NCBI RefSeq assembly: GCF_019175385.1
Contig: NC_083339.1
Coordinates: forward strand, 46,095,330-46,159,329
Source: Lycium barbarum
Lineage: Eukaryota; Streptophyta; Magnoliopsida; Solanales; Solanaceae
Direction of reading: 5' to 3'
Length of the DNA stretch: 64,000 nt
This document shows positions 5,378 to 57,485 of this stretch, in pieces. Positions within the stretch are counted from its first letter, which is position 1, and each line of letters begins with the position of its first letter. A program made the translations under genes and the position numbers. A model generated the notes under the pieces. That model ran no database searches, was not told where the DNA came from, and saw only the letters and a program-made list of their open reading frames with translations.

Positions 5378-8300
5378 TGTTATATCCCACATTTTATACA
5401 ATCGGATAATTCAAGACAATCGCGGGAAGACAACAAGCAAGGCCACATTTTATTTTGTTTGGCACATGAGTTGTTTATGAAAAATCTAGAAGTGAAGATA
5501 ATGAGAAAGGTCAAGAGCATAAAAGGAAGTTGCAATATGACTCTTGGGAATATGGAAGAAGACGAAGGGTAAATTTGGAATTCGGAAAAATTGTTTTCAT
5601 GAATTACAAGAACTAGCCCAAAATATAATTGGGCTTGAAATTTTTTTAAAAAAAAATAGAGGCCCAACCGGCCATGGCATGGGCTAGGCCCATGTGGGAA
5701 TTTAATTTTCAAGCATAAAAGATGACAAAGTCATCTTTATCACATAATATTCAAGAAGCTTCAAGAAATTGAAAGAACAAGAAAGAGAAGGAGAAAAGTT
5801 GAAGGCCATTTCGGCCAAGGGTAAACCAACAAGAAAAGTTGACAACAATTCCTTCAAAAATCAATTTCTACTAATTAGAGGGTCCTTAACAAGGTGGAGT
5901 TGTTGTTGAAGCAAGAAAAATTCATAATCATACAAGTTGCCAAGTTGTAGTCAAGTGAGAAGTTGAAGAAGAAAGGTGAGTTTTAATCTTGTTTTATGTG
6001 TTATGAATGGTTTATACGTGTTGTAGTATGCTAAAATGGATGAAATTCATGAAGGAAAGGAATATAGTATGTGGCCGTGCATGTGCATATATGTGTAAGA
6101 AACATGTTTTAATTATTTTGTCTAGTGTTTGGTTGTATTGTTGTGAATGTTATGTGAAAAATGGAAGTTGAATGATTTTGGAGAGATTGTAGTTGTGAAG
6201 GCATGATGAAGCCGTGTGTGTGCATGGTGTATGTGACCGTGTATATTGGTGAATTATGCACGGATAGTGAGTAAGTTTTATTTAGCATGTTGGTCGTTGT
6301 GTTGTGGAGATTATATTACAAATGGAAGCCTAATGAGCTTAGTGGAATAGTAGTAATTGGAGGCTTGTTTTGGAAGGTTATGTGAATTGAATGCTATGTT
6401 CTTCCATGTATGAAATGTAATGATATTAGAATGGTGTTGTTGGAATATGTTATAAGATTGTTATTGTGTTCATTGGAGTCCGAAGGTTTTGAAGAAAGTA
6501 GTAAATCGATATCATGTATCTTGAATCAAATATGTGAATCGCTAGTGTGGTTGTTGAATTTATTTTGATAGTTTGGCCGGGTTTGAATTCCCGGATTGTG
6601 ATTGATGAGGATTTGGCTATGTTGAATGTCGAGGATGGTGTATTTACAGAGGAAATGCTGCCGAAATTTCGGTAGCCAAGTGTTTCCTTAAGATTCTAAC
6701 TCTAAGTATCCTAATAAGAGTTTTGGTAAACATGACCAAATTGCAGATTTTGACGAGATTGCAACGTGAATTTGGAGTAGCAAAAGGAGCGGAAAAAGGT
6801 ATGTAAGGCTTCACCCTTCTTTCTATGGCATGTCTTAGATGTAATAAGTCAGGTACGAGCCTCGGGGACAACCCTAGTCCCCGGAATCCGCACCTAAAGT
6901 TTTCCACTTTTTGTTCAATAGAATTGAACTAGAAAGTGTGCAAATGATGGAAAGACCTCTTAAACCCTTAGAACTTGCATAAGTGGGACCCGATTACCCT
7001 AGAACCCTCACAAGTAATGACATGACACGTAACATATGTAAATCATATACGCCACCCCATCCGGCCCGAGGTGGGCCCGTTACTCTCAGATTTTCCTTAC
7101 AGTCTTGCTTGACTTACTTGAAGTGAATCCAAAGGGAACCTTTGATCCCGATTTCGTTACCCAATGATAAGTACTATGACTCCTCTAACGAGGGCACTTC
7201 CATGACGATAATGATAACAATGATGTTAGATAAGAGGATATGCTTATGATACGTACTACCGGAACGACTCTTTGACTAAGATGACTAAGCTAAGTATCTT
7301 ATGTAAACATGAAGATGATAAACTAATTTTTGAATCCATTTATATTTCCTAGCTATGACTTTATTTTCTAAAGATTTCAAAGTCTATGAACTGTCATCTA
7401 TGATGCCCACGATTTCATTCTATGTTTCCTTTAATATTATTCTCCGTTGATAGTCTCACCTTAAAATACTCGTTCCTTCAAGGTGAGACAAAGCGATCAC
7501 GAGTATTCTATAATGTAATCGGAGGTTACCGACTTTATGTCACTCCGATAGACGTAACTTTCTTTGGACTCCCGTGCATGCTGGTTATATGTTACAGGGA
7601 TATGTGTATGGACATGTATATGTATATAGGACAAGTATTTGTATATAAGACATGTATATGTATAATAGATAAGTAAATGTACTCGTATATGTATATGGGG
7701 AAAGGGGAAGGGCCACTGTTATATCACTACCTGATTCAGCTGGATTTCATCCTGGATGCGGGATGCCCGGACGCGGGATATGGGAGAGTCGTACGCGGCG
7801 TCTATATATATATGATGTATGATATATATGATATGATGTGTTGGGACACCGTTGGGGAGGGGGGTTGGGAGAGCTGATGTATTCGGCGTCTTTAAATGTG
7901 AGTAAAAGATACCGTTTACTGAATTGTACTATTTTCTGTATACGAGAATAAGGGACACCGTGTTCTGAAAAAGGGGCAATGCTATGACATGATACGCTAT
8001 GCCAAGATAAACTATGATATGAGATGCTACGACCTGACGTGATACGACACGCTATGATAGAGCAGCACATAATATGATAAAATATGACACGATATAAATC
8101 CTATTTTCTGTGTCTACGAGAAAGAAATGTCTCAAAGAGAAAAGGACAAGCCTACATGATAGCCGGCCTGAAACGGAGGCCTTCCCACGTACAGGTTACT
8201 TTCGTGCCCCGTTATATGTCCTATGACTCCATGATATTGTAAATCGTACTCTATGTTACTGTTTATATTATATTTTATGTCTTACATACTCGGTACACTA

Positions 8301-8768
8301 TTCAAACTGACGTCCCTTCTTGTGGACGTTGCGTTTCATGCCGCGCAGGTCAGCAAACAGGTGGACGTGATCCTTAGAAGCTCTACCAGCCACACTTGAC
8401 AGCGCTCCAGTTGTTTCGGAGCCTCACTCCAGCGGTACTATTTTGTGTATGTACATTCGGGCACGACAGTACTCGGCCCTTTCTATGTATAAGTGTACTA
8501 TGTCTAGAGGCTCGTAGACAGATATGCGCAGTCAGCTATGTACAGTTAGATGTGTTGTATTTTGAAGTGTTCGCGTCCCGGTATAACGCGATAGCTGAAA
8601 GCTTACTACTTATGTTTATGGTGACGCTGCTAATGTTAATGTTCAGAAAGGAAAAAAAATTATGGCTCTGTTTACACGGCTTGCCATGAGGTAAAGGTAA
8701 TATGATAGATAAGGGGTGTTCGGTAAAAGTATCGGGTACTCGTCACGGCCCCTAGTCGGGTCGTGACA
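5378..8768 (+). repeat. 5' LTR of element B (3391 bp)
   Basis: TG...CA ends. Landmarks in order: TATA-like CATAAAAG (5714-5721), a 5' splice-site-like GAAAG/GTGAGT (5975/5976), acceptor-like TTTACAG before 6650, hairpin CTGCCGAAATTTCGGTAG (6658-6675), AAAG/GTATGTAAG (6798/6799), the conserved block with hairpin ACGTCC/GGACGT (8310-8329) and GCAG at 8348. Confidence 0.9.
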
Positions 8769-8772
8769 GAAG

Positions 8773-8784
8773 TGGTATCAGAGC
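8773..8784 (+). promoter_or_regulatory. Primer binding site, element B
   Basis: TGGTATCAGAGC, four bases after the LTR end, is the standard complement of the 3' end of plant initiator Met-tRNA, used to prime reverse transcription. Confidence 0.92.
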
Positions 8785-8830: not shown

Positions 8831-8866
8831 TGTTTATGGGTGTGTAGCGCGCCACACTTATAAACA
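8831..8866 (+). promoter_or_regulatory. Leader hairpin with palindromic loop (candidate dimer initiation site), element B
   Basis: TGTTTATGGGTGTG (8831-8844) pairs with CACACTTATAAACA (8853-8866): 14 base pairs including two G-U. The 8-nt loop TAGCGCGC ends in the self-complementary GCGCGC (8847-8852). The hairpin lies 58 nt after the start of the primer site. Equivalent hairpins occur at the same place in D, E, F and A'. Function in RNA dimerisation/packaging is inferred by analogy with retroviral kissing loops. Confidence 0.75.
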
Positions 8867-8981
8867 GGAGGCTACAGGGCATTTAGGAAATATGACCTTC
8901 TTTGTGTCCTAAGATCGTGCGATAGAGCTATGCTATCAGGCTTCCACATTCCTTTCCTAATCCTATGCTATGGTTTCAGTA

Positions 8982-11167: not shown

Positions 11168-14100
11168 TGTTATATCCCACATTTTATACAATCGGATAAT
11201 TCAAGACAATCGCGGGAAGACAACAAGCAAGGCCACATTTTATTTTGTTTGGCACATGAGTTGTTTATGAAAAATCTAGAAGTGAAGATAACGAGAAAGG
11301 TCAAGAGCATAAAGGGAAGTTGCAATATGACTCTTGGGAATATGAAAGAAGATGAAGGGTAAATTTGGAATTCGGAAAAATTGTTTTCATGAATTACAAG
11401 AACTAGCCCAAAATATAATTGGGCTTGAATTTTTTTTTAAAAAAAATAGAGGCCCAACCGGCCATGGCATGGGATAGGCCCATGTGGGAATTTAATTTTC
11501 AAGAATAAAAGATGACAAGGTCATCTTTATCACATAATATTCAAGAAGCTTCAAGAAATTGAAAGAACAAGAAAGAGAAGGAGAAAAGTTGAAGGCCATT
11601 TCGGCCAAGGGTAAACCAACAAGAAAAGTTGACAAATATTCCTTCAAAAATCAATTTCTACTAATTAGAGGGTCCTTAACAAGGTGGAGTTGTTGTTGAA
11701 GCAAGAAAAATTCATAATCATACAAGTTGCCAAGTTGTAGTCAAGTGAGAAGTTGAAGAAGAAAGGTGAGTTTTAATCTTGTTTTATGTGTTATGAATGG
11801 TTTATACGTGTTGTAGTATACTAAAATGGATGAAATTCATGAAGGAAAGGAATATAGTATGTGGCCGTGCATGTGCATATATGTGTAAGAAACATGTTTT
11901 AATTATTTTGTCTAGTGTTTGGTTGTATTGTTGTGAATGTTATGTGAAAAATGGAAGTTGAATGATTTTGGAGAGATTGTAGTTGTGAAGGCATGATGAA
12001 GCCGTGTGTGTGCATGGTGTATGTGACCGTGTATATTGGTAAATTATGAACGGATAGTGAGTAAGTTTTATTTAGCATGTTGGTCGTTGTGTTGTGGAGA
12101 TTATATTACAAATGGAAGCCTAATGAGCTTAGTGGAATAATAGTAATTGGAAGCTTGTTTTGGAAGGTTATGTGAATTGAATGCTATGTTCTTGCATGTA
12201 TGAAATGTAATGATATTAGAATGGTGTTTTTGGAATATGTTATAAGATTGTTATTGTGTTCATTGGAGTCCGAAGGTTTTGAAGAAAGTAGTAAATCGAT
12301 ATCATGTATCTTGAATCAAATATGTGAATCGCTAGTGTGGTTGTTGAATTTATATTGATAGTTTGGCCGGGTTTGAATTCCCGGATTGTGATTGATGAGG
12401 ATTTGGCTATGTTGAATGTCGAGAATGGTGTATTTACAGAGGAAATGCTGCCGAAATTTCGGTAGCCAAGTGTTTCCTTAAGATTCTAACTCTAAGTATC
12501 CTAATAAGAGTTTTGGTAAACATGACCAAATTGCAGATTTTGACGAGATTGCAATGTGAATTTGGAGTAGCAAAAGAGCGGAAAGAGGTATGTAAGGCTT
12601 CACCCTTCTTTCTATGGCATGTCTTAGATGTAATAAGTCGGGTACGAGCCTCGGGGACAACCCTAGTCCCCGAAATCCGCACCTAAAGTTTTCCACTTTT
12701 TGTTCAATAGAATTGAACTAGAAAGTGTGCAAATGATGGAAAGACCTCTTAAACCCTTAGAACTTGCATAAGTGGGACCCGATTACCCTAGAACCCTCAC
12801 AAGTAATGACATGACACGTAACATATGTAAATCATATACGCCACCCCATCCGGCCCGAGGTGGGCCCGTTACTCTCAGATTTTCCTTACAGTCTTGCTTG
12901 ACTTACTTGAAGTGAATCCAAAGGGAACCTTTGATCCCGATTTCGTTACCCAATGATAAGTACTATGACTCCTCTAACGAGGGCACTTCCATGACGATAA
13001 TGATAACAATGATGTTAGATAAGAGGATATGCCTATGATACGTACTACCGGAACGACTCTATGACTAAGATGACTAAGCTAAGTATCTTATGTAAACATG
13101 AAGATGATAAACTAATTTTTGAATCCATTTATATTTCCTAGCTATGACTTTATTTTCTAAAGATTTCAATGTCTATGAACTGTCATCTATGATGCCCACG
13201 ATTTCATTCTACGTTTACTTTAATATTATTCTCCGTTGATAGTCTCACCTTAAAATACTCGTTCCTTCAAGGTGAGACAAAGCGATCACGAGTATTCTAT
13301 AATGTAATCGGAGGTTACCGACTTTATGTCACTCCGATAGACGTAACTTTCTTTGAACTCCCGTGCATGCTGGTTATATGATATAGGGATATGTGTATGG
13401 ACATGTATATGTATATAGGACAAGTATTTGTATATAAGACATGTATATGTATAATAGAGAAGTAAATGTACACGTATATGTATATGGGGAAAGGGGAAGG
13501 GCCACTGTTATATCACCACCTGATTCAGCTGGATTTCATCCTGGACGCGGGATGCCCGGCCGCGGGATGCCCGGAAGCGGGATGCCCGGACGCGGGATAT
13601 GGGAGAGTCGTACGCCGCGTTTGTATATATATGATGTATGATATATATGATATGATGTGTTGGGACACCGTTGGGGAGGGGGGTTGGGAGAGCCGATGTA
13701 TTCGGCGTCTGTAAATGTGAGTAAAAGATACCATTTACTGAATTGTACTATTTTCTGTATACGAGAATAAGGGACACCGTGTTCTGAAAAAGGGGCAATG
13801 CTATGACATGATACGCTATGCCAAGATATACTATGATATGAGATGCTACGACATGACGTGATACGACACGCTATGATAGAGCATCACATAATATGATAAA
13901 ATATGACACGATATAAATCCTATTTTCTGTGTCTACGAGAAAGAAATGTCTCAAAGAGAAAAGGACAAGCCTACATGATAGCCGGCCTGAAACGGAGGCC
14001 TTTCCACGTACAAGATACTTTCCTGCTCCATTATATATCCTATGACTCCATGATATTGTTAATCGTACTCTATGTTACTGTTTATATTATCTTTTATGCC

Positions 14101-14586
14101 TTACATACTCGGTACACTATTCGTACTGACGTCCCTTCTTGTGGACGCTGCGTTTCATGCCACGCAGGTCAGCAGACAGGTGGACGTGATCCTTAGAAGC
14201 TCTACCAGCCACACTTGACAGCGCTCCAGTTGTTTCGGAGCCTCACTCTAGCGGTACTATTTTGTGTATGTACATTCGGGCACGACAGTACTCGACCCTT
14301 GCTATGTATAAGTGTACTATTTCTAGAGGTTAGTAGACAGATATGCGCAGTCAGCTAAGTACAGTTAGATGTGTTGTATTTTGAAGTGTTCGCGTCCCGG
14401 TATAACGCGATAGCGGAAAGCTTACTACTTATGTTTAAGGTGACGCTGCTAATGTTAATGTTCAGAAAGGAAAAAAAATATGGCTCTGTTTACACGGCTT
14501 GCCATGAGGTAAAGGTAATATGATAGATAAGGGGTGCTCGGTACAAGTATCGGGTACTCGTCACGGCCCCTAGTCGGGTCGTGACA
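11168..14586 (+). repeat. 3' LTR of element B (3419 bp)
   Basis: Nearly identical to 5378-8768. It is slightly longer in part because a 15-base unit (CGCGGGATGCCCGGA type) is present about four times at 13544-13600 but only about twice in the 5' LTR. The exon-like block corresponds to 12440-12587. Confidence 0.9.
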
Positions 14587-26663: not shown

Positions 26664-29600
26664 TGTTATATCCCGAATTTTGTACGTTAGGATTTCAAGG
26701 TGGCCGTGGTAAGTTAAGGGATTGACCATCTACCAAAATTATTTTAATGTACAAGTTGGTCATGAACATTATTTATGAACATTAGTGGTATGGAAATATT
26801 GAGAAAGACTAAGGGCAAAAAGGGAAATTCGCAAAATAGTACATGGTAATATTCTGGAAGCCTAGGGGCAAAATGGTAATTTCACAAAATAGTAAAGAAG
26901 ATTCTTGAAAGAGGCCATGTTGGCCGTGTGATATATAGGTATATGTCCACATTTTAATGTGGATATGGACCAAAGTGGATATAATAAGATAAGTGGTCAT
27001 ATTTGGTTATTATAAGAAAATTTGTCTTCTTTGAGTAATTAAGAAAATTCTAGAAAAAGGGAGAAGAGCCATGTGTTATATTTTTTTTAGTAGAAGCCAT
27101 GTAAAAATATACATGTATGAATATGGAAGTAATGACAAAATAAGAAATTAGTCATCTTGGTTTTAATTCAAGAAAGTTCAAGAAGGGGACATGTGTCCAC
27201 CCCCTCATAGGTTATGTATATATATATATATAAGAGCTTATAAAGCAAGGCAAGTCATTTTATCTTCCACAAATTAAGAAATCTCAAGAAAAGAAGCAAG
27301 GAGCCTTCGGCCAAGGGTTGGCCGAACCACACACTTGAACACTTGATCCAAAAAAAATTATTTTCTTCTTGCATTTCGAGTAATTGGGACGTCCTCTATA
27401 ACATGGGAGAGTTATTGGAGCAAGAAAATTATTCATTCTTGCAAAAACTACCTTGGCCGAAAGTTGAAGGATAAGTGGAAAAGGTAAGACTTAATTTCTT
27501 TCTCTTATGTGTTATGGATAGTTAGTGTATGTCGTAGTACGGAGAAATGAATGAAAAACATGAAATCATGTATGTTGAAATTGTGGCCGTGTGTTTGTAT
27601 AGTTAGTCGTGGGTGTGTTGTGTTATGTGGAAAGATTGAATTAATTTTATGTAGTATGTTGGTTGTTGGAATGTATGGAAAAGGATGAAAATTCATAGAA
27701 ACATGTGTCTAGTTGTTGTGGCCGAATGATGGGTAGTTTGGCAAGTTATGGCGAATTGATTCTATGCGATATTCTAGTTGTTGTTGTTGTGGATTCCATG
27801 AGGAAAAGTGAAGGTTTGGTAGCTTTGAATGAATTTGAAATCGTTTGTTCATAATTGAAGAAGTTAATGTGACGTTAGTGTGGTTTCCTATATTTGAAAA
27901 AAAAAAATTGGACAATGTATGGGTTGTAAATATGGTTTATGAAATTGGAAATGAGACATGTGTTGGAAGATTGCAAGTTAGGTCATTGTGAATATTGTTG
28001 AAGTTGCTAGTATGATTGTTGATATTTTGGCCGAGTTAAATTCTCGGATTGATTGATTGATGATTTGGGTCGAGTTAGATTCTCGGGGATGGTGTATTTA
28101 CAGGGAAGATGCTGCCGAAATTTCAGCAGATTATGAATGAATTCATTTGAAAGATTAAGACAAGTATATGGTGATGAAACTAATGATTGCGTCAATCTTC
28201 TTGAATGTAGAATAGCGGTAGCGAGCTTGGACAATTTAGCGTAACTAATAGGACGCGAAACAGGTATGTTAAGGCTCGTCCCTTTCTTTCAAAGGCATGA
28301 TCTCGATGTTATGATTTCATAAGTGTTTCCATATTTTCCTTGTTTTCAAAAGTTAGATGTTTATGACTCTAAGGTAAGATTCTCTTCCCGATAAACCGTA
28401 AATGTTTTTCCAAAGTGTCTATACTTTTCCAAAACAAAGGTTTAATGATTTTGGTAAGCTTTTATGACTATAACGACGGCCATGTTTTTGGTAATGAAAA
28501 CGATGTTGTCAAAGATGAGAATATGTCTAAGATGATCATGATGAGAATGGTTCCATGTTTGAAAGTCTCAAGATATGGATTCAATATGAATATGAGAATA
28601 TTGGGCTAGTTCTTGATCCTAAATTTTATTCCTTGATTATGACTCTACTTTCTAAAGACTTTAAGTATATGAATTTACGCCTTATGAGGGTTATGATCTT
28701 ATTATATGTTTTCTCTTAATGCTATTCTTTATTGATAGTCTCGCCTTATAATACTAGTCCCTTCAAGGTGAGACAAAGCGATCATGGTTATTCCATAATG
28801 CAATCGGAGGTTACCGACCTTACGTCACTCCGATAGATACATGACTTTCTTTGGGCTCTCATGCATGCTGTTATATGTATATGTATATGGGGAATATGGG
28901 GAAAACGGGACATATGTATATGTATATGGGGGGGGGGGGGGGGAGGGAGATATGTTGCGCTATAAGACGCATTGCCACCTGGTCAGCTGGCGTATTCATC
29001 CCGGACGCGGGACATATATGGGCGAGCCGACGTATTCGGCGCTATGTGGGCTAGCCGGCGTTATTCGGCGCTATGACATGTTCTATTTTCTATATATATG
29101 AAAAGAAATGTTTTCAAAAGAAGTAAAATATGATATGTACGGATCGGGCTGCACGTTCCGCAGCACTAAGCATGCATGGTACCGCCAAAAGGCATTCATA
29201 CGTACAGGTTACTCCTCCATCTCATCATATGCTCTATATTTCCTTTGTGTCATTATCCGTGCTATATGTTCCTCATATGTTATTAGTCATGCCTTACATA
29301 CTCAGTACATTGCTCATACTGACCCCTCTTCTTCGGGGGCTGCATTTCATGCCGTGCAGGTACACCCAGATGAGCTGAAGCTAGTATAGAAGACGTTCCA
29401 GCGGAGATGGTAAACTCCACTTGTCCTGGAGTGCTGCCGAGTCATAGTATATGTGCTATGATGTTTGTTCGAAGTTAGAGACTTTGCAGACAGAGTCGTG
29501 GGTATAGTATGTCAGTTCTGTAAATGGATCCAACGGCCGATGTGTCAGTTTGTATTATGATATGAATTCTATATAATTACAGATTTTGTTGGATTTGATA

Positions 29601-29765
29601 AACAAAGAAAAAGCAAAGATTTCTGAAAAACCTTAATATGTGTTTCATGCTTATTTGATTTAAAAGTCTGGAAAGATCATGTATGAAATAAGAGTCTGTA
29701 GGTTCGCTCGGCTCCGGGTATGGGGTCGGGTGCCCGTCACACACTAGTAAGGTCGGGGTGTGACA
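26664..29765 (+). repeat. 5' LTR of element D (3102 bp)
   Basis: TATA run at about 27216-27232, AAG/GTAAGA at 27483/27484, TTTACAG before 28104, CTGCCGAAATTTCAGCAG at 28112-28129, ACAG/GTATGT at 28263/28264, a 16-G run at 28928-28943, a short TTCGGCGCTAT(G) tandem at about 29020-29080, conserved branch-site/hairpin block near 29300-29359. Confidence 0.9.
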
Positions 29766-29768
29766 AAG

Positions 29769-29780
29769 TGGTATCAGAGC
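29769..29780 (+). promoter_or_regulatory. Primer binding site, element D
   Basis: TGGTATCAGAGC begins four bases after the LTR end and is complementary to the 3' end of initiator Met-tRNA. Confidence 0.92.
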
Positions 29781-29825: not shown

Positions 29826-29861
29826 TGTTTATTGGTGTGAAGCCGGCCACATTTATAAACA
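29826..29861 (+). promoter_or_regulatory. Leader hairpin with GCCGGC loop, element D
   Basis: TGTTTATTGGTGTG pairs with CACATTTATAAACA (one T-T mismatch, two G-U). The loop AAGCCGGC (29840-29847) ends in self-complementary GCCGGC. It lies 57 nt after the primer-site start. It is kept although the element codes for nothing, which argues for a cis role. Confidence 0.75.
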
Positions 29862-30454
29862 GGAGGCTGCGGGGCATCTGGGGATTGTTGACCTTCTTTC
29901 TATCATAGATCGTGCGATAGAGCTAAGTCATAAGAGATAAGATTTCCTTATATAAGCCTCACGTACGACGGAAGAAGGCGAGTGATGCTATGAAAGGTTA
30001 TAGAGGAAAGTCCTGACGTATTTGTTCTGCTATCCGGAATCGGAAGTTCTGGGTAGCTAGAATATGCTGTATGACTGTATGCTTGGCAAGGTATTATCGA
30101 TATTTGCTGCGTACAGACTTTGAACAGTAAAAAAATGGTAAAGGAGGTTCTGCCAGAATGGGTACGCCTAACAGGAGGAAGCGTGGAAAGGAAATATTGT
30201 AAATAGGGAATAAGTGAGATGCGTTGTTTCAGAAAGGTTATGGATTTGGCATGACGATAAAGGTGCGATAACTACCATCGGGAATCTAGGATCCAGGACG
30301 AAAGATAGTTATGCACGTAAGCTAAAGGTGAAGGTTGAGGGTCGAAAAGGGTAAAATAGTAATTGTAAAGGGAAGGACGTGTTACGAAAATGCCTCGGAA
30401 TCCATAGGACCTCGACTTGCTTTGAATCATGTAATAAAGGTCATGTGAGGAAGC

Positions 30455-32431: not shown

Positions 32432-35400
32432 TGTTATATCCCGCATTTTGTACATTAGGATATTTCAAGGTGGCCGTGGTAAGTTAAGGGATTGACCATC
32501 TACAAAAATTATTTTAATGTACAAGTTGGTCATGAACATTATTTATGAACATTAGTGGTATGGAAATATTGAGAAAGGCTAAGGGCAAAAAGGGAAATTC
32601 GCAAAATAGTACATGGTAATATTCTGGAAGCCTAGGGGCAAAATGATAATTTCACAAAATAGTTAAGAAGATTCTTGAAAGAGGCCATGTTGGCCGTGTG
32701 ATATATAGGTATATGTCCACATTTTAATGTGGATATGGACCAAAGTGGATATAATAAGATAAGTGGTCATATTTGGTTATTATAAGAAAATTTGTCTTCT
32801 TTGAGTAATTAAGAAAATTCTAGAAAAAGGGAGAAGAGCCATGTGTTATATTTTTTTTAGTAGAAGCCATGTGAAAATATACATGTATGAATATGGAAGT
32901 AATGACAAAATAAGAAATTAGTCATCTTGGTTTTAATTCAAGAAAGTTCAAGAAGGGGACATGTGTCCACCCCCTCATAGGTTATGTATATATATATATA
33001 TATAACAGAGCTTATAAAGCAAGGCAAGTCATTTTATCTTCAACAAATTAAGAAATCTCAAGAAAAGAAGCAAGGAACCTTCGGCCAAGGGGTGTCCAAA
33101 CCACACAATTGAACACTTGATCCAAAAAAAATTATTTTCTTCTTGCATTTCAAGTAATTGGGACGTCCTCTATAACATGGGAGAGTTGTTGGAGCAAGAA
33201 AATTATTCATTCTTGCAAAAACTACCTTGGCCGAAAGTTGAAGGATAAGTGGAAAAGGTAAGACTTAATTTCTTTCTCTTATGTGTTATGGATAGTTAGT
33301 ATATGTCGTAGTACGGAGAAATGAATGAAAAACATGAAATCATGTATGTTGAAATTGTGGCCGTGTGTTTGTATAGTTAGCCGTGGGTGTGTTGTGTTAT
33401 GTGGAAAGATTGAATTAATTTTATGTAGTATGTTGGTTGTTGGAATGTATGGAAAAGGATGAAAATTCATAGAAACATGTGTCTAGTTGTTGTGGCCGAA
33501 TGATGGGTAGTTTGGCAAGTTATGGCGAATTGATTCTATGTGATATTCTAGTTGTTGTTGTTGTGGATTCCATGAGGAAAAGTGAAGGTTTGGTAGCTTT
33601 GAATGAATTTGAAATCATTTGTGCATAATTGAAGAAGTTAATGTGACGTTAGTGTGGTTTCCTATAGTTGAAAAAAAAATAAAAAAAAAATTGGACAATG
33701 TATGGGTTGTAATTATGGTTTATGAAATTGGAAATGAGACATGTGTTGGAAGATTGCAAGTTAGGTCATTGTGAATATTGTTGAAGTTGCTAGTATGACT
33801 GTTGATATTTTGGCCGAGTTAAATTCTCGGATTGATTGATTGATGATTTGGGCCGAGTTAGATTCTCGGGGATGGTGTATTTACAGGGAAGATGCTGCCG
33901 TAATTTCGGCAAATTATGAATGAATTCATTTGAAATATTAAGACAAGTATATAGTGATGAAACTAATGATGGCGTCAATCTTCTTGAATGTAGAATAGCG
34001 GTAGCGAGCTTGGACAATTTAGCGTAGCTAATAGGACGCGGAACAGGTATGTTAAGGCTCGTCCCTTTCTTTCAAAGGCATGATCCCGATGTTATGATTT
34101 CATAAGTGTTTCCATATTTTCCTTGTTTTCAAAAGTTAGATGATTATGACTCTAAGGTATGATTCTCTTCCCGATAAACCATAAATGTTTTTCCAAAGTG
34201 TCTATACTTTTCCAAAACAAAGGTTTATGATTTTGGTAAGCTTTTATGACTATAACGACGGCCATGTTTTTGGTAATGAAAACGATGTTGTCAAAGATGA
34301 GAATATGTCTATGATGATCATGATGAGCATGGTTCCATGTTTGAAAGTCTCAAGATATGGATTCAATATGAATATGAGAATATTGGGCTAGTTCTTGATC
34401 CTAAATTTTATTCCTTGATTATGACTCTACTTTCTAAAGACTTCAAGTATATGAATTTACGCATTATGAGGGTTATGATCTTATTATATGTTTTCTCTTA
34501 ATGCTATTCTTTATTGATAGTCTCGCCTTATAATACTAGTCCCTTCAAGGCGAGACAAAGCGATCATGGTTATTCCATAATGTAATCGGAGGTTACCGAC
34601 CTTACGTCACTCCGATAGATACATGACTTTCTTTGGGCTCTCATGCATGCTGTTATATGTATATGTATATGGGGAAAAAGGGACATATGTATATGTATAT
34701 GGGGGGGGGGGGGGGAGGGAGATATGTTGCGCTATAAGACGCATTGCCACCTGGTCAGCTGGCGTATTCATCCAGGACGCGGGATGCCCGGACGCGGGAC
34801 ATATATGGGCGAGCCGACGTATTCGGCGCTATGTGGGCGAGCCGGCGTTATTCGGCGCTATGACATGTTCTATTTTCTATATATATGAAAAGAAATGTTT
34901 TCAAAGGAAGTAAAATATGATATGTATAGATCGGGCTGCACGTTCTGCAACACTAAGCATGCATGGTACCGCCAAAAGGCATTCATACGTACAGGTTACT
35001 CCTCCATCTCATCATATGCTCTATATTTCCTTTGTGTCATTATCCGTGCTATATGTTCCTCATATGTTATTATTCATGCCTTACATACTCAGTACATTGC
35101 TCGTACTGACCCCTCTTCTTCGGGGGCTGCGTTTCATGCCGCGCAGGTACACCCAGATGAGCTGAAGCTAGTATAGAAGACGTTCCAGCGGAGATGGTAA
35201 ACTCCACTTGTCCTGGAGTGCTGCCGAGTCAGAGTATATGTGCTATGATGTTTTTTTGAAGTTAGAGACTTTCCAGACAGAGTCGTGGGTATAGTATGTC
35301 AGTTCTGTAAACGGCTCCATCAGCCGATGTGTCAGTTTGTATTATGATATGAATTCTATATAATTACAGATTTTGTTGGATTTGATAAACAAAGAAAAAG

Positions 35401-35551
35401 CAAAGATTTCTGAAAACCTTAATATGTATTTCATGCTTATTTGATTTAAAAGTCCGGAAAGATCATGTATGAAATAAGAGTCCGTGGGTTCGCTCGGCTC
35501 CGGGTATGGGGTCGGGTGCCCATCACACCCTAGTAAGGTCGGGGTGTGACA
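32432..35551 (+). repeat. 3' LTR of element D (3120 bp)
   Basis: Nearly identical to 26664-29765, with an extra CGCGGGATGCCCGGA-type unit at about 34777-34798 and length changes in homopolymers. Exon-like block at 33887-34046. Confidence 0.92.
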
Positions 35552-35556
35552 AATCT

Positions 35557-38397: not shown

Positions 38398-40826
38398 TGT
38401 TACACCTCAGAAAATTTCCCGTTGGTACGCAAGTAAATGAACTAATGATGTGTACGTGGGGTGCATGTGTATAATGTTTCATGGGAAATGTATGTAAAGG
38501 GTTGTGGATGATTAGAATGAAAAGTCGAGAAATGAGAAAAATTGAAAGTTGGCAAAACTGCCCAGTGGTCGTATATTGCAAAATACGGACCGTAAAGTAC
38601 AATACGGTCCGTAAACTGGCAGTCGTAAACTGCCATGCAAAAGCTTCAGCTTTCTGCCAGTGGTCGTAAAGTGCAAATACGGACCGTAAACTGGTATACG
38701 GTCCGTAAACTGCCATGCAAAAGCTTCAACTTTCTGCCAGCTGAGGAAATGGTTAAATACGACCTGGTGGACGGACCGTAAAGTGATTTACGGCCCGTAA
38801 ACCATGGTCGTAAACCACCATGAAGGCAGCCCAGCTTCTGGTTCTGGAAATAGCTAAATACGCCCATGGAGGACGAGCCGTATAGTGGAATACGGTCCGT
38901 AAACCTCCATGGATGACCACTGTTCACCCACCATAGATTTTCCAATTCATTAAATATGAGGATCAAGACTTATTTTATTTCACTACAACATTACACCACT
39001 TCTCTCTAAAACTTCTCTCTACATTTATTATATGAGTTTTCAAGGATTATAAGCCATCAATAACATTAAGATAAGTGAATCAAGGATAAGGGAATCATCA
39101 AGGATCATCCAAGTTAAGAAATCCAAATGGAGAAGAACTAGGGTTTTACTCAAAGAAGAGTATTATCAACCAAAGCTTGTTCCTACAACTTCTAAGGTAA
39201 GATTCATGATTTTTACAAGATGTTTAAAGTATTGGAGAATTAAAATACATGGATTGTGGAAAATGTGGTCAACTAGGTCATGTATGATGAATAGTGACAT
39301 TTTGAGAAATAGTTTGAATTGAGTTATGAATGTTGTTGTGTTGTGATATGAATGTGTTATAAATGGTATTAAGTACATGAACTAAACACTTTAGACGAAT
39401 GGACGAAGATGGGTGTTATGACCATGAATGTAGGTGAATTAGAGGCAAATTGAGGAATCTAGATAAGGTGGATAATGTGAATGACTAATGGCCATTGTTA
39501 TGATATTAATGAAGGTATAAACGCTAGCAATTGGAAGGGAACGTGCAAGTGTAGAGTAGCTAGACGGAAAGGTATGTAAGTCTAACCCTTCTTTCATAAG
39601 GCATGGTTCTTGGCCAAATTCCTAATTCCTCTATATGAGTATGTTGTCTTCACATGGTTGAAATTCCGAGCTCATAAGCTCACGACCCTTGATATGTACT
39701 ATGATTATACTATGTCCCTCGTATGACGAGTAAGTCCATAATGTAGATGTAACGATAACGATGAGGATAGTAATGATAATGATATCAAAAATGATGCAAA
39801 AGGTGCCTACGGGCTATTATACTTACATGTGCCTATGAATGGCTATAATGAACCCCGAGCTTATAACGCCGGGTAGAATATATGTATATGAATAGGTATG
39901 AAGTATGTATACGATTACGAAACGCGCGCGCACGTCTGCAGATGGTACGGATAACCCTGAAGCCTTGGTAGGGCCAGGTAGAAATAACATTGAGCTTTGG
40001 TTGGCTAAGTACGTATGAAACACCGACCCTTATGGTCGGGCACGCTATGTATGTATATAAGTGTATGGCTATGTATATAATATGAATATGAATCTGAAAA
40101 GACTATGTATAAGAATACGAATAAGGACATGTATACGAATATGAGCACAAGTATGGTACGAGTACTATTATGGGATACGGATGATGACGTAGGTGTACTA
40201 ATACGTATGAAAAATGGAAAGTCCTACGAAAGGCAGGTAAGTACTATGATGATGATATTACTGTCTCCCCTCCTATGCTATTTCATATGATATCTATTAT
40301 GCTTCTATATTGATGTTGATCATGCTTTACATACTCAGTACATTCTTCGTACTGATGTCCCTTTTGTTTGTGGAAGCTGCGTCATGCCCGCAGGTGCACA
40401 GGGAGACAGACTTGATCCATAGCTGCTTGTTCAGAGATTGCATAGCAAAGCTCCATTTCTTTCGGAGTCGTAGCTTTTGGGTACTTATTCTTTTGTGTAT
40501 ATAATTATGGGCATAGCGGGGTCCTGTCCCGCTCATACGATATGTCATACTCTTAGAGGCTCGTAGTCATGTGTATGTGGGTAGAGATGTTTGGCCATGT
40601 CGGCCCATGTTTTTGTTAGCCACGTCAGCCTTGTACTTATGATGTGGCATAGGTGCCTATGATATGTTAAATGATGGTGGTCGTCTAATAGGATCAATAT
40701 GATTAACGATAAGAAAAGCACGAACTGACTTATGGCTCACCTAGATGTTATGTTATGTACGAATAAGGGGGTGCTCGGGTGGGGTAGCACCGGGTGCTCG
40801 TCGCGGCCCCTAGCCAGGTCGTGACA
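38398..40826 (+). repeat. 5' LTR of element E (2429 bp)
   Basis: Carries a palindromic word array (38584-38901), first 5' splice-like AAG/GTAAGA at 39196/39197, AAAG/GTATGTAAG at 39571/39572, conserved block TCAGTAC/GTACTGA at 40335-40355 with GCAG ending 40393, and hairpin AGCGGG/CCCGCT at 40515-40533. Confidence 0.92.
38584..38901. repeat. Array of TACGG-N-CCGTA palindromes in LTR E
   Basis: Six 11-mers of form TACGG, one base, CCGTA lie at 38584, 38603, 38678, 38697, 38789 and 38891, with two imperfect ones at 38770 and 38872. Central A and T versions alternate, so neighbours are also reverse complements of each other. The array lies shortly upstream of the AT-rich promoter-like region near 38950. 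The 3' LTR copy is at about 46177-46508. Confidence 0.85.
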
Positions 40827-40830: not shown

Positions 40831-40848
40831 TGGTATCATAGCCAGGTT
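40831..40848 (+). promoter_or_regulatory. Primer binding site, element E
   Basis: TGGTATCATAGCCAGGTT matches the initiator Met-tRNA 3' complement over 17 of 18 bases (T for G at position 9), starting four bases after the LTR. Confidence 0.93.
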
Positions 40849-40889: not shown

Positions 40890-40925
40890 TGGTTATGGGT
40901 GTGTTGCGCGCCACACTTATAAACG
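40890..40925 (+). promoter_or_regulatory. Leader hairpin with GCGCGC loop, element E
   Basis: TGGTTATGGGTGTG pairs with CACACTTATAAACG (one mismatch, three G-U). The loop TTGCGCGC (40904-40911) ends in self-complementary GCGCGC, the same palindrome as in B. It starts 59 nt after the primer-site start. Confidence 0.75.
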
Positions 40926-41038
40926 AGAAGCTGCGGACATTTTAGCAATATATGACCTTCTTTCTTTATAAGAATCGTGCGATAGAGCTATGATGTAAGA
41001 AATTCTTGTTCCTAAATCGTGTGTTGTGTATTTTATAG

Positions 41039-42107: not shown

Positions 42108-43445
42108 TTGCATTGGGGTCAGTGCCGATCAGGTTCAGACGCTTGCTATTCATGTGGTCGGTCAGGCCATATTATGCGTGATTGCCCCTCAGTACATGGT
42201 AGAGGTAGGACCCAGCCATCAGGGTCGGTAGCTGGATCTTCGGCATCTGTACGCCCTACGGGGCCAGGCTCACATGCGCCAGTCGGCCATGGTAGAGGTA
42301 GAGGCAGAGCTCCCAGTACTAGCGGTCCTCAGCACCGTATTTATACTTTGGCTGGACGCCAAGATCTTGAGTCTTCTCCTGATGTGGTCACAGGTATATT
42401 ATCGGTATTCTCTCATGATGTATATGCTTTGATTGATCCGGGCTCCACACTATCATATGTTACTCCATATATTGCGGGTCGATTTATAATTGAGCCGGAG
42501 TGTATCAAACCTTTTGAGGTGTCTACACCCGTGGGTGACTCGGTAATAGCTAGCCGAGTATATAGGAATTGTGTGATTGTGATTTGTGATCGTCGTACCA
42601 TGACTGATTTGCATGAGATAGAAATGGTAGATTTTGACGTTATTATGGGCATGGATTGGTTGGCTTCTTGCTATGCCAATGTTGATTGTACAATGAAAAT
42701 GGTTCGCTTCCAGTTTCCGGGAGAACCAGTCTTAGAATGGAAAGGAAATTCGGCATCACCAAAATGTAGGTTTATTTCCTATCGAAAGGCAAGGAAGATG
42801 ATCACGAAAGGGTGCATTTATCACCTAGTGCGAGTTCAAGATGTAGAAGCTGAGTCGCCGACTCTTCAGTCAGTTCCGGTAGTGAATGAATTTCCGGATG
42901 TGTTCCCGGAAGAGCTTCCAGGCCTTCCTCCTGAGCGGGAGATTGATTTTGCGATTGATGTGTTGCCAGACACTAATCCCATATCTATTCCTCCCTATAG
43001 GATGGCACCCGCAGAGTTGAAAGAGTTGAAGGAGAAATTAAAAGACTTGTTTGGAAAAGGCTTCATTAGGCCTAGTTCATCCCCGTGGGGAGCACCCGTA
43101 TTGTTCGTCAGGAAGAATGATGGCTCCTTGAGAATGTGCATTGATTATCGGAAATTGAATAAAGTGACAATTAAGAACAAGTATCCCCTCCCGAGGATTG
43201 ATGATTTATTTGATCAATTGCAAGGTGCCAAATGGTTTTCAAAGATTGATTTGAGGTCCGGGTATCACCAAGTAAGAGTTAGGGAGAAAGATATCCATAA
43301 GACAGCTTTCAGAATAAGATATGGCCATTTCGAGTTCCGACTAATGTCGTTTGGACTAACTAATGCACCGGCAGTGTTTTATGGACTTAATGAACAATGT
43401 ATTCGGGCCTTTTATGGATCTATTCGTGATTGTGTTCATCGATGA
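42108..43445 (+). pseudogene. pol: Zinc knuckle, protease and RT N-terminal half, element E pol
   Basis: The frame opens in nucleocapsid: [14 protein letters not shown] (CX2CX4HX4C) lies at about residues 15-28. Protease follows with the active-site segment [15 protein letters not shown] (about residues 104-118) and flap-side [12 protein letters not shown] near 180. RT begins after the linker [20 protein letters not shown], with the fingers motif [17 protein letters not shown] and palm motif [13 protein letters not shown] carrying the first catalytic aspartate. The frame ends early because one T too many lies in the TTTT run near 43377-43381. RT continues in another frame from 43363. Confidence 0.95.
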
Positions 43446-44922
43446 TATCCTAGTGTATTCTAGATCCGAGGCAGAACATGCGGATCACTTGCGTATTGTC
43501 CTTGGAGTTCTTCGAACCCGAGAGTTATTCGCGAAGTTTTCCAAATGCGAGTTTTGGTTGAACTCAATGCCATTTCTGGGCCACATTGTTGCAGCTGACG
43601 GTATTCGAGTGGACAGCCAAAAGATTGAGGCAATGAAGACTTGGCCAAGGCCCATGACCCCTACGGAGGTTCGTAGCTTTTTGGGCTTAGCAGGTTATTA
43701 CAGAAGATTTGTTGAGGATTTCTCTTCTATTTCTGCACCGCTCACCAAGTTGACTCTGAAGTCAGCTAAGTTTCAATGGACAGATGCTTGCGAGCGTAGT
43801 TTCCAAGAGTTGAAGGACCAACTGACTTCAGCCCTAGTCTTGACACTTCCAGAGGGATTGGAAGGATATGTTATTTATTGTGATGCTTCAGGCATCGGGC
43901 TAGGCTGTGTATTGATGCAAAATGGTAAGGTGATTACGTATGCTTCTAGACAATTAAGGAAACATAAGCAGAATTATCCTACCCATGACTTAGAATTGGC
44001 CGCGGTGGTCCATGCTTTAAATATATGGAGACATTACTTATATGGTGTCCACGTGGATATTTATACAGATCATAAGGGTCTCCAGTACATCTTCAAGCAG
44101 AAAGAGTTGAATTTGCGGCAACGACGATGGCTAGAGTTGCTAAAAGACTATGATGTTGAAACCCTGTACCACCCCGGAAAGGCAAATGTTGTGGCTGATG
44201 CTCTTAGCCGTAGGTCGATGGGAAGTCTAAGTGATGTACGACCAGAAAAGAAAGAGATGGCCCGTGACCTAGGAGTCCGAGTGGTGGACTCAGGTAGCAG
44301 CGGAGCTACTATTCAGAATTCAGCAGTTTCATCGTTAGTAGAGGAAGTAAAAGAGCGACAATATGAGGATCCCATGCTAATGCAGTATAGAGATACACTC
44401 CCTCAAAAGGAGGAGTCATCATTTGACATTTCGGAAGACGGAGTTCTCCGATGTCGAGGCAGGTTATGTGTTCCCGATGTGGTAGGTCTACGCCATGAGA
44501 TTTTGAGAGAAGCTCATTGTTCCCGTTACTCCGTTGACCCCGGAGCGACGAAAATGTATCACGATCTTAAGTCTATATATTGGTGGAATGGGATGAAGAA
44601 AGATATAGCGGAATTCGTAGCTCAGTGTCCAAATTGCCAACAAGTGAAGATCGAGCACCAAAAGCCGGGTGGCGTATTGCAAGCTATAGAAATCCCAACT
44701 TGGAAGTGGGAAGTGATTAATATGGATTTCATTACAGGGTTACCCCGTTCTCGACGTAAATATGATTCTATATGGGTGATCGTGGATAGACTCACAAAGT
44801 CAACGCATTTCTTACCGGTCAGAACGACCTATATGGCAGAAGATTATGCCAAGCTTTATCTTAAAGAGATAGTGAGACTCCATGGCGTTCCGGTATCTAT
44901 TATCTCCGATAAAGGAACTTAG
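43363..44922 (+). pseudogene. pol: RT C-terminal half, RNase H and integrase core, element E pol
   Basis: This frame holds the RT catalytic pair ([12 protein letters not shown]), the thumb ([16 protein letters not shown]), then RNase H with the acidic residues visible as YCDAS, DLELAAV and YTDHKGLQ (about residues 170-250). Integrase follows with the HHCC zinc domain (the histidine region MYHDLK..., CPNCQQVK) and core aspartates in NMDFITGLP and IISDKGT. A TAG at 44920-44922, where gypsy integrases have glutamine after the GT, ends it. Overlap with the preceding frame is a frameshift artefact, not an overlapping gene. Confidence 0.95.
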
Positions 44923-44931
44923 TTTACAGGA

Positions 44932-45783
44932 ATGTTTTGGGGGTCTTTCCAAGAAGGTTTAGGGACCCAAGTGCGCCTAAGCACGACATTTCACCCCCAG
45001 ACCGATGGGCAAGCTGAACGTACTATTCAGACTCTTGAAGATATGTTACGGGCATGTATGATAGATTTTGGAACCGTTACGGGCATGTATGATAGATTTT
45101 GGAACAGTTATCATTCTAGCATTCAAATGGAACCGTATGAGGCTCTATATGGGCGAAAGTGTAGATCCCCAATTGGGTGGTTTGAAACCGGAGAAGCTAA
45201 GTTGATAGGGTCAGACTTGGTCCAGCAAGCAAAAGAGAAAGTTAAGCTCATACAAGATCGGTTGCTAGCGGCTCAAAGTCGTCAGAAGTCCTATGCGGAT
45301 AATCGTCGAAGAGACTTAGAGTTCGAAGTGAAAGATTGGGTATTCTTGAAAGTGTCGCCGATGAAGGGCGTGATGAGATTTGGCAAAAGGGGGAAGCTCA
45401 GTCCCCGGTATATTGGGCCATACGAAATTGTACGCAAAATAGGCAAAGTGGCCTATGAGCTAGATCTACCTCCAGATTTGGAGTCAGTCCATCCAGTATT
45501 TCATGTCTCGATGCTTCAGAAGTGTGTTGGAGATCCTACGAGGATCGTCCCAGTGAATGATATTCAAGTGACAGAAAAGTTAACTTATGATGAAACACCC
45601 ATTGCCATATTAGATAGGCAAGTACGGAGGCTTAGAAACAAAGAAGTGGCCTCAATTAAAGTTCTGTGGAGAAATAGCAATCGAGAGGAAATGACATGGG
45701 AAGCGGAAGAGAATATGCGATCCAAATACCCACATTTATTTCAGCCCTTGGAAGAAGTCCAAGATGAGACGTCAAAATCATAA
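44932..45783 (+). pseudogene. pol: Integrase C-terminal part and chromodomain, element E pol
   Basis: Begins just after the stop. It holds the third catalytic residue region (HPQTDGQAERTIQTLED), the YEALYGRKCRSP motif, the GPY/F module (SPRYIGPYEIVRKIG) and the FHVSMLQK motif. A C-terminal chromodomain follows (AILDRQVRRLRNKEV, VLWRN, MTWEAEENMRSKYPHLF). A 31-base direct duplication at 45045-45106 replaces part of the stretch between the ERTIQ helix and SYHSS, and the frame stays open. The stop at 45781 is the natural end; a 200-base 3' untranslated part and polypurine tract follow. Confidence 0.95.
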
Positions 45784-45989: not shown

Positions 45990-48432
45990 TGTTACACCTC
46001 GGAAAATTTCCCGTTGGTACGCAAGTAAATGAACTAATGATGTGTGCGAGGGGTGCAAGTGTATAATGTTTCATGGGAAATGTATGTAAAGGGATGTGGA
46101 TGATTAGAATGAAAAGTCAAGAAATGAGAAAAATTGAAAGTTGGCAAAACTGCCCAGTGGTCGTAAATTGCAAAATACGGACCGTAAAGTGCAATACGGT
46201 CCGTAAACTGGCAGTCGTAAACTGCCATGCAAAAGCTTCAGCTTTCTGCCAGTGGTCGTAAAGTGCAAATACGGACCGTAAACTGGTATATGGTCCGTAA
46301 AGTGCCAGGTCGTAAATTGGCATGCCAAACTTCAACTTTCTGCCATCCGAGGAAATGGTTAAATACGACCTGGTGGACGGACCGTAAAGTGATTTATGGC
46401 CCGTAAAACATGGTCGTAAACCACCATGAAGGCAGCCCAGCTTCTGGTTTTGGAAATTGCTAAATACACCCATGGAGGACGAGCCGTATAGTGGAATACG
46501 GTCCGTAAACCTCCATGGACGACCACTGTTCACCCAGCACAGATTTTCCAATTCGTTAAATATGAGGATCAAGACTTATTTTATTTCATTACAACATTAC
46601 ACCACTTCACTCTAAAACTTCTCTCTACATTTATTGTATGACTTTTCAAGGATTATAAGCCATCAATAACATTAAGACAAGTGAATCAAGGATAAGGGAA
46701 TCATCAAGGATCATCCAAGTCAAGAAATCCAAATGGAGAAGAACTAGGGTTTTGCTTAAAGAAGAGTATTATCAACCAAAGCTTGTTCCTATAACTTCTA
46801 AGGTAAGATTCATGATTTTTACAAGATGTTTAAGCTATTGGAGAATTAAAATACATGGATTGTGGAAAATGTGGTCAACTAGGTCATGAATGATGAATAG
46901 TGACATTTTGAGAAATAGTTTGAATTGAGTTATGAATGTTGTTGCGTTGTGATATGAATGTGTTATAAATGGTATTAAGATCATGAACTAAACACTTTAG
47001 ACGAATGGAAGAAGATGGGTGTTATGACCATGTATGTGGGTGAATTAGAGGCAAATTGAGGAATCTAGGTAATGTGGATAATGTGAATGACTAATGGCCA
47101 TTGTTATGATATTAATAAAGGTATAAACGCTAGCATTGGAAGGGAACGTGCAAGTGTAGAGTAGTTTGACGGAAAGGTATGTAAGGCTAACCCTTCTTTC
47201 ATAAGGCATGGTTCTTGGCCAAATTCCTAATTCCTCTATATGAGTATGTTGTCTTCACATGGTTGACATTCCGAGCTCATAAGCTCACGACCCTTGATAT
47301 GTACTATGATTATACTATGTCCCTCGTATGACGAGTAAGTCCATAATGTAGATGTAAGGATAACGATGAGGATAGTAATGATAATGATATCAAAAATGAT
47401 GCAAAAGGTGCCTACGGGCTATTATACTTACATGTGCCTATGAAGGGCTATAATGAACCCCGAGCTTATAACGCCGGGTAGAATATATGTATATAAATAT
47501 GTATGAAGTATGTATACGATTACGAAACGCGCGCGCACGTCTGCAGATGGTACGGATAACCCTGAAGCCTTGGTAGGGCCAGGTAGAAATAACATTGAGC
47601 CTTGGTTGGCTAAGTACGTATGAAACACCGACCCTTATGGTCGGGCACGCTATGTATGTATATAAGTGTATGGCTATGTATATAATATGAATATGAATCC
47701 GAAACGACTATGTATAAGAATACAAATAAGGACATGTATAGGAATATGAGCACAAGTATGGTACGAGTACTATTATGGGTTACGGATGATGACGTAGGTG
47801 TACTAATACGTATGAAAAATGGAAAGTCCTACGAAAGGCAGGTAAGTACTATGATGATGATATTACTGTCTCCCCTCCTATGATATTTCATATGATATCT
47901 ATTATGCTTCTATATTTATGTTTGATCATGCTTTACATACTCAGTACATTCTTCGTACTGACGTCCCTTTTGTTTGTGGATGCTGCGTCATGCCCGCAGG
48001 TGCACAGGGAGACAGACTTGATCCATAGCTGCTTGTTCAGAGATTGCATAGCAGAGCTCCATTTCTTTCGGAGCCGTAGCTTTTGGGTACTTATTCTTTT
48101 GTGTATATAATTATGGGCATAGCGGGGTCCTGTCCCGCTCATACGATATGTCATACTCTTAGAGGCTCGTAGTCATGTGTATGTGGGTAGAGATGTTCGG
48201 CCCATGTTATGTATATCTTTTGTTAGCCACGCCGGCCTTGTACGTATGATGTGGAATAGGTGCCTATGATATGTTAAATGATGGTGGTCGTCTAATCGGA
48301 TCAATATGATTAACGATAAGAAAAGCACGAACTAACTTATGGCTCACCTAGATGTTATGTTATGTACGATAAGGGGGTGCTCGGGTGGGGTAGCACCGGG
48401 TGCTCGTCGCGGCCCCTAGCCGGGTCGTGACA
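45990..48432 (+). repeat. 3' LTR of element E (2443 bp)
   Basis: Nearly identical to 38398-40826. Both LTRs keep the palindrome array, splice-like motifs and hairpins; here the hairpin AGCGGG/CCCGCT is at 48121-48139. Confidence 0.93.
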
Positions 48433-57481: not shown

Positions 57482-57485
57482 CTTT

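What the first reader, a model, noticed from the sequence alone, without database searches (positions are those of the whole stretch)
8831..8866. Kissing-loop (dimer initiation) hairpin in plant Ty3/gypsy leaders, with compensated palindromes
Five elements carry a hairpin at the same place, 55-59 nt after the start of the tRNA-Met primer site: B 8831-8866, D 29826-29861, E 40890-40925, F 61506-61541, A' 57391-57426 (minus). Each has a stem of about 14 pairs and an 8-nt loop. The last six loop bases are GCGCGC (B, E), GCCGGC (D) or GTGCAC (F, A'). All are perfect self-complementary six-mers although the bases differ, which is the signature expected of loop-loop kissing between two RNA copies. 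Retroviral dimerisation loops such as those of HIV-1 use GCGCGC or GTGCAC in the same kind of loop (established knowledge). I know of no description of this in plant chromoviruses.
Basis: partly seen in the sequence, partly recalled or inferred. Interest (0 to 1): 0.9.

Follow-up and report, generated by a model that had tools for sequence, protein, structure and literature searches.

The report
Kissing-loop hairpin in plant retrotransposons
Five related plant jumping genes carry, just after the site where copying starts, an RNA hairpin whose tip changes its letters but stays able to pair with a copy of itself, as expected if two RNA copies are held together there as in retroviruses.

Summary
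In detail: five hairpins at the stated places, 55-59 nt after the primer-site start, 13-14 pairs, 8-nt loops ending in GCGCGC, GCCGGC or GTGCAC. Signs that the palindrome is selected: stem arms are 87-92% identical between elements, the loop only 62.5%, yet its two variable pairs change only on both sides together. From a palindromic ancestor, simulated drift, with or without CpG decay, gave five palindromes of three or more kinds in at most 3.3 per 10,000 runs. The palindrome is one base off the hairpin centre, so the inverted repeat does not produce it. Three elements show no gag or pol match yet keep the leader. Best reading: a dimer-initiation (kissing) hairpin in a packaging leader.

Limits: five loops, one genome, no biochemistry. 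E's leader is not predicted to expose the loop. One of two outside traces of the loop does not fit a palindrome. Two further, presumably plant, Ty3 leaders (three contigs, two identical) lack it, so it belongs to this family group, not to plant chromoviruses in general. Kissing loops are known or proposed in retroviruses, Ty1 and Ty3: a new member of a known kind.

The parts
8773..8784 (+). B: primer binding site (initiator tRNA-Met type)
   Evidence: exact TGGTATCAGAGC; the tRNA assignment is recalled knowledge
8831..8866 (+). B: kissing-loop hairpin, 14 pairs, loop TAGCGCGC
8847..8852 (+). B: palindromic loop six-mer GCGCGC
8913..8928 (+). B: second conserved leader motif GATCGTGCGATAGAGC
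5378..8768 (+). B: 5' LTR (96.8% identical to the 3' copy)
11168..14586 (+). B: 3' LTR
29769..29780 (+). D: primer binding site
29826..29861 (+). D: hairpin, 13 of 14 pairs, loop AAGCCGGC
29842..29847 (+). D: palindromic loop six-mer GCCGGC
29908..29923 (+). D: second conserved leader motif
26664..29767 (+). D: 5' LTR (as aligned; the true end is probably 2 nt earlier)
32432..35553 (+). D: 3' LTR (as aligned)
40831..40842 (+). E: primer binding site, one mismatch
40890..40925 (+). E: hairpin, 13 of 14 pairs, loop TTGCGCGC; not the predicted fold of the whole leader
40906..40911 (+). E: palindromic loop six-mer GCGCGC
40973..40988 (+). E: second conserved leader motif, one mismatch
38398..40826 (+). 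E: 5' LTR
42108..45783 (+). E: zinc knuckle, protease, RT, RNase H, integrase, weak chromodomain match, in three open pieces
45990..48432 (+). E: 3' LTR
57470..57481 (-). A': primer binding site, one mismatch
57391..57426 (-). A': hairpin, 13 of 14 pairs, loop TTGTGCAC
57405..57410 (-). A': palindromic loop six-mer GTGCAC
57330..57345 (-). A': second conserved leader motif
57482..59943 (-). A': 5' LTR (approximate, as aligned in two pieces)
50131..52756 (-). A': 3' LTR (approximate, as aligned in two pieces)
61450..61461 (+). F: primer binding site, one mismatch
61506..61541 (+). F: hairpin, 14 pairs, loop TTGTGCAC
61522..61527 (+). F: palindromic loop six-mer GTGCAC
61586..61601 (+). F: second conserved leader motif, two mismatches

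Best explanation
The hairpin is the dimer-initiation site of the RNA genome of a group of plant Ty3/gypsy (Tekay-like) elements. Shown: directly 3' of the primer site a long irregular stem is predicted whose apical loop holds a self-complementary six-mer in all five elements, and the six-mer differs between elements only by paired changes. Inferred: two transcripts touch through these loops, the contact starts the genome dimer that Gag packages, and it may then grow into the stem. Also inferred: because three self-complementary loop types coexist, like pairs with like, so the loop helps decide which RNAs are packaged together. Elements without coding capacity keep the leader because they need it to be packaged by proteins of others.
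For: Five of five loops palindromic, three types. Pair counts: the three loop pairs form in 15 of 15 cells, two of the three with changes on both sides, none one-sided. Conservation: stem arms 92.1 and 87.1%, primer site 93.3%, loop 62.5%, stretch between primer site and stem 61.7%. Simulation from a palindromic ancestor: all five palindromic with three or more types in 0 to 3.3e-4 of runs over nine settings, 100,000 runs each. Six-mer unpaired 0.98-1.00 in four of five leaders, with or without 100 nt of LTR. Like-with-like six-mer duplexes -7.9 to -11.7 kcal/mol, unlike -2.2 to -6.6. The leader aligns at 75-84% over 173-265 nt in 7 of 10 element pairs, while beyond it only B-D (an LTR piece and an internal piece) and B-E (gag) align at the same threshold. 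D, A' and F show no gag or pol match in the window, yet keep the leader. Same principle in Ty3: deleting one palindrome abolishes dimerisation in vitro, and it sits at a hairpin apex in vivo (PMC11381356, passages).
Against: Only five loops from one genome; B with E and F with A' share a loop type, perhaps by descent. GCGCGC to GTGCAC can be CpG decay. With five sequences the shuffle control is weak: 11 of 500 shuffles reach the covariation score, 69 of 500 the number of two-sided pairs, 278 of 500 the number of pair types, and one slid version (+3) also has two two-sided pairs. If three types are not required, all five loops stay palindromic in 2e-5 to 0.011 of simulated runs. E, the only element with RT and integrase, is not predicted to expose the loop. 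0 of 17 stem pairs has a two-sided change. D's leader gave no alignment of 150 nt or more with E, F or A' at E 1e-20. A protein-database trace of an A'-like copy implies a non-palindromic loop (P0121); a second one (P0122) agrees. Two other Ty3 leaders (L007 = L008, and L011) lack such a loop. The loop lacks the flanking purines that HIV-1 needs. Whole-hairpin dimer energies set D apart but B/E from F/A' only weakly, and F prefers E to itself.
Confidence: 0.7

Rival explanations
1. The hairpin is a conserved leader element (Gag binding, packaging, primer-site folding or translation) whose loop is not used for dimerisation; the palindromes are inherited from one ancestor and altered by CpG decay and chance.
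For: The stem is conserved as sequence more than as structure. GCGCGC to GTGCAC needs only two CpG transitions and half of the double outcomes are palindromes (from the sequence). The tree of the five rests on 125 alignment columns without support values.
Against: With 5 or 10 rate units added at CpG sites the observed outcome stays at or below 3.3e-4. GCCGGC differs from GCGCGC by two paired transversions. The loop is about as variable as the stretch before the stem, so it is not simply frozen.
Confidence: 0.18
2. The palindrome acts in DNA (a protein-binding site or a by-product of a large inverted repeat).
For: The whole hairpin is an inverted repeat also in DNA.
Against: The palindrome's centre is one base off the hairpin's centre, so the inverted repeat does not produce it. 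Three different six-mers are unlikely to be one binding site. By its place right after the primer site it lies in the transcribed leader (from the anatomy).
Confidence: 0.05
3. The loop pairs within the same RNA or with a different RNA (host or tRNA), and self-complementarity is incidental.
For: In E the six-mer is predicted to be mostly paired within the leader. For Ty1 two different complementary loops are proposed to pair (PMC5454406, passages).
Against: No such partner explains why three different loops are each self-complementary; in four of five leaders the six-mer is predicted free.
Confidence: 0.05

Closest known systems
HIV-1 dimerization initiation site (SL1/DIS)
   Same: Hairpin in the 5' leader with an apical six-mer palindrome; HIV-1 strains use GCGCGC or GUGCAC (PMC4588261 and PMC7357161, passages); palindromes differ between lentiviruses. 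Its place between primer site and gag is recalled.
   Different: HIV-1 loop AAGCGCGCA has nine bases, and purines flanking the palindrome are strictly conserved; here eight bases, 5' flanks TA, AA or TT, no unpaired 3' flank; no dimer shown.
Ty3 dimerization site DS/PAL6 (yeast Ty3/gypsy)
   Same: Palindromic six-mer (CUGCAG) in the apical part of a short hairpin near the 5' end, proposed to kiss first (PMC11381356, passages).
   Different: PAL6 is at nt 391-396, among the palindromes in the GAG frame; here the hairpin is in the untranslated leader, 55-59 nt after the primer-site start. No sequence link tested.
Ty1 SL1a/SL3a kissing complex
   Same: Loop-loop contacts near the 5' end proposed to start dimerisation of a retrotransposon RNA (PMC5454406, passages).
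   Different: Two different complementary loops, with a pseudoknot; Ty1 is a copia-type element (recalled).
BARE1/BARE2 (barley) dimerization and packaging signals
   Same: A plant LTR element said to have conserved dimerization and packaging signals, shared with a parasitic relative (PMC3735527, passages, one sentence on this).
   Different: Superfamily Copia; the passages seen describe no palindromic loop.

Membership tests
Kissing-loop dimer-initiation sites (general) | Self-complementary (palindromic) six-mer in an apical loop of the 5' leader | tested here: met
   5 of 5 hairpins; in the fold of the whole leader free in 4 of 5, not in E
Kissing-loop dimer-initiation sites (general) | Self-complementarity kept while letters change | tested here: met
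   two loop pairs with two-sided changes, none one-sided; drift simulations; but P0121 implies one broken loop
Kissing-loop dimer-initiation sites (general) | RNA dimerises through the loop | not testable with these tools
   needs transcripts and gels
HIV-1 type DIS | Nine-base loop with conserved purines flanking the palindrome | tested here: not met
   eight-base loops, 5' flank TA/AA/TT, no unpaired 3' flank
HIV-1 DIS family of Rfam (its presence there is recalled) | Covariance-model match | tested here: not met
   four matches at E up to 1 in the window: two miRNA families and 5S rRNA twice, none in a leader
Plant chromovirus (Tekay-like) LTR retrotransposon | protease-RT-RNase H-integrase order with C-terminal chromodomain | tested here: inconclusive
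   E: domains in order, chromodomain match below the curated cut-off (23.6 vs 25.1 bits); relatives listed include Solanum, Cucumis and other plants, best 120 of 7975 seen; the clade name Tekay is recalled and not tested by a tree; D, A', F have no coding match
LTR retrotransposon | Paired LTRs, primer site, target-site duplication | tested here: met
   paired LTRs for B, D, E, A'; primer site in 5 of 5; 5-bp duplications AATCT (D) and GAACC (E), 4 of 5 letters alike in B, A' not worked out; F runs off the window

The most novel reading that the evidence does not exclude
The loop six-mer is a compatibility code: co-resident plant retrotransposon families carry different self-complementary loop types, so RNAs of one type dimerise and are packaged together, and non-coding families (D, A', F) exploit or are restricted to partners of their own loop type, as HIV-1 and HIV-2 heterodimers depend on loop match.
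Probability: 0.2. Interest if true: 0.75.

Novelty: new member of a known kind. Interest (0 to 1): 0.55.

Why it matters
Ty3/gypsy elements make up much of large plant genomes (recalled), yet how their RNAs are paired and packaged seems little studied. A short, compensated palindrome gives a directly testable dimerisation site, could explain how non-coding elements are mobilised by others, and would extend to plants the kissing-loop principle recently proposed for yeast Ty3. In eight paper searches (open-access PubMed Central, listings of the top 10-20 each except with 2) I saw no title or abstract start describing it for plant Ty3/gypsy elements.

Tried and rejected
Wider sample: viral contigs scanned by DNA pattern and by protein: no relative; L001-L004, found by pattern, were judged chance matches from their printed sequence alone. 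Genome contigs by pattern: none. Genome contigs by pol alignment: 7 loci titled as bacteria but encoding Ty3-type pol, read by me as contamination; 3 of 7 have a perfect primer site, and none of these 3 the hairpin.

Protein trick: the loop six-mer lies in an open frame on both strands, so predicted antisense proteins carry it as two residues. The alignment query gave 1 candidate, none scored; the single query gave 2 proteins: P0122 (V-H, compatible with a palindrome at loop pair 2-5) and P0121 (G-H, not compatible). Pair 3-4 cannot be read this way.

Rejected: an upstream reading frame as the reason for conservation (ATGGGTGTG is present in B, E, F but not in D and A'); the (AT)n-swamped hairpin control, replaced by a filter chosen after seeing it. 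RNA dimer energies of whole hairpins were of little use beyond D. The search for the antisense peptide in papers found none. Element C has no primer site or hairpin in the 280 nt inspected after its 5' LTR.

Full report
What was checked. The distance from primer-site start to hairpin is 58, 57, 59, 56 and 55 nt in B, D, E, F and A'. Stems have 14, 13, 13, 14 and 13 of 14 pairs, wobbles counted, and loops have eight bases whose last six are GCGCGC (B, E), GCCGGC (D) or GTGCAC (F, A'). The primer site is exact in two and one letter off in three.

What carries it. B, D, E and A' have paired LTRs at 95.7-96.8% identity, with 5-bp target-site duplications for D and E. E encodes zinc knuckle, protease, RT, RNase H, integrase and a chromodomain match just below the curated cut-off, in three open pieces. 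Of 7975 related proteins the best 120 were listed; those with a name are mostly from plants, Solanum among them, and the top one is labelled Corynebacterium, which I read as contamination. Between its LTRs B has a gag match and a stretch matching zinc knuckle to protease start, but no RT or integrase match. D, A' and F gave no gag or pol match, F being cut by the window end (queries were three pieces of E and the first 500 residues of the L007 frame, E-value limit 1e-4).

Conservation. Around the primer site a block aligns at 75-84% over 173-265 nt in 7 of 10 element pairs; D-E, D-F and D-A' gave no alignment of 150 nt or more at E 1e-20. Beyond this block only B-D (an LTR piece and a 290-nt internal piece) and B-E (gag) align at that threshold. 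In the alignment of all five the mean pairwise identity is 93.3% for the primer site, 61.7% between primer site and stem, 86.2% for the basal stem 5' side, 92.1 and 87.1% for the two hairpin arms, 62.5% for the loop, 71.8% for the basal 3' side, 44.6% beyond, and 92.5% for a second motif, GATCGTGCGATAGAGC. That motif occurs at five places in the window with up to three mismatches, all in these leaders, against 0.23 expected. The consensus fold places the hairpin at the tip of a longer irregular stem.

Is the palindrome selected? The loop's three pairs form in 15 of 15 cells; two of the three have changes on both sides and none on one side only. For hairpin and loop pairs together, 11 of 500 shuffles reach the observed covariation score, 69 of 500 the number of pairs with a two-sided change and 278 of 500 the number of further pair types, so with five sequences this control is weak. 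Sliding the partners gives 38-58% of cells paired instead of 96%, but the +3 slide also shows two pairs with two-sided changes. A simulation along the tree of the flanks, starting from a palindrome, with 0, 5 or 10 rate units added at CpG sites, gave five palindromes of three or more kinds in 0 to 3.3e-4 of runs, and five palindromes of any kinds in 2e-5 to 0.011 (nine settings of 100,000). The tree is short of data (125 columns, no support values), so this is an order of magnitude. The palindrome sits one base off the hairpin's centre, so it is not a continuation of the stem's inverted repeat. In the window, 1 of 21 other hairpin entries meeting the same filter has a palindromic loop.

Confounders. 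The change GCGCGC to GTGCAC is what two CpG deaminations can give, and half of the double outcomes are palindromic; this pair alone would be weak evidence. The D loop needs two paired transversions. In four of five leaders the six-mer is free with probability 0.98-1.00; in E it is not (0.18-0.20), and forcing the hairpin puts E 3.5 kcal/mol above its predicted best fold; E's stem mismatch may be the cause (inference). Outside traces of the loop from antisense proteins: one agrees, one does not.

How general. Among seven contaminant contigs with Ty3-type pol three have a perfect primer site. That they are of plant origin is my reading. L007 and L008 are identical over the 216 nt of leader compared and have instead a hairpin of about 13 pairs with a tetraloop; L011 shows nothing of this kind. 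L007 and L011 have no palindromic six-mer in an apical loop of the predicted fold. So the feature belongs to this family group, not to all such Ty3 elements. The search of the window's own genome, which would settle it, did not complete (13 calls).

Mechanism. Best supported (0.7): a dimer-initiation hairpin that brings two transcripts together by loop-loop pairing ahead of packaging. Shown: place, predicted structure, compensated palindromes, retention in elements without recognisable coding. Inferred: dimerisation, its coupling to Gag, and like-with-like choice, for which six-mer energies (-7.9 to -11.7 for like, -2.2 to -6.6 for unlike) are only suggestive, since whole-hairpin energies clearly separate D alone.

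Known ground. HIV-1 and relatives (PMC4588261, PMC7357161), Ty1 (PMC5454406) and Ty3 (PMC11381356) have or are proposed to have palindromic or kissing loops near the 5' end; BARE in barley is said to have conserved dimerization and packaging signals (PMC3735527). I read passages of these, not whole papers, and passages of a Ty1/Ty3 packaging review (PMC4974528), of a review of host factors of plant LTR elements (PMC12786077) and of a fungal Copia paper that mentions the retroviral DIS only for comparison (PMC5445492). In searches I saw no plant Ty3/gypsy case in the listings. The loop differs from HIV-1's in size and flanks, so it may work like a DIS but is not of the HIV-1 type.

Noticed in passing
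10632-10748 (B) and 30461-30571 (D), + strand: 5S rRNA-like sequence, full model length but below Rfam's cut-off (27.3 and 31.3 of 38 bits), inside the internal regions of B and D; best kept at about model positions 50-102. Unlike Cassandra, which carries 5S sequence in its LTRs (PMC10853983, abstract start and passages). Perhaps a captured Pol III promoter (inference).
   Followed up: partly
8913-8928, 29908-29923, 40973-40988, 61586-61601 (+), 57330-57345 (-): Second conserved leader motif GATCGTGCGATAGAGC; its core AUCGUGCGAU is self-complementary if two central G-U pairs are allowed (broken in F). Candidate packaging element.
   Followed up: partly
about 8733-8775 and equivalents (alignment A1 columns 5-45): The last 40 nt or so of the LTR fold into a hairpin next to the primer site; two of its pairs (A1 columns 15-33 and 16-32) keep pairing through changes on both sides.
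   Followed up: no
38598, 38692 and 46190: Repeated ATACGGACCGTA...TACGGTCCGTAA hairpins with differing loops in the LTRs of E.
   Followed up: no
L005-L011: Contigs titled as Mycobacterium, Streptomyces, Geminicoccus, Solirubrobacter and others encode Ty3-type pol; L005-L008 and L011 (54-64% identical to E's pol) look like eukaryotic contamination of reference genomes.
   Followed up: partly
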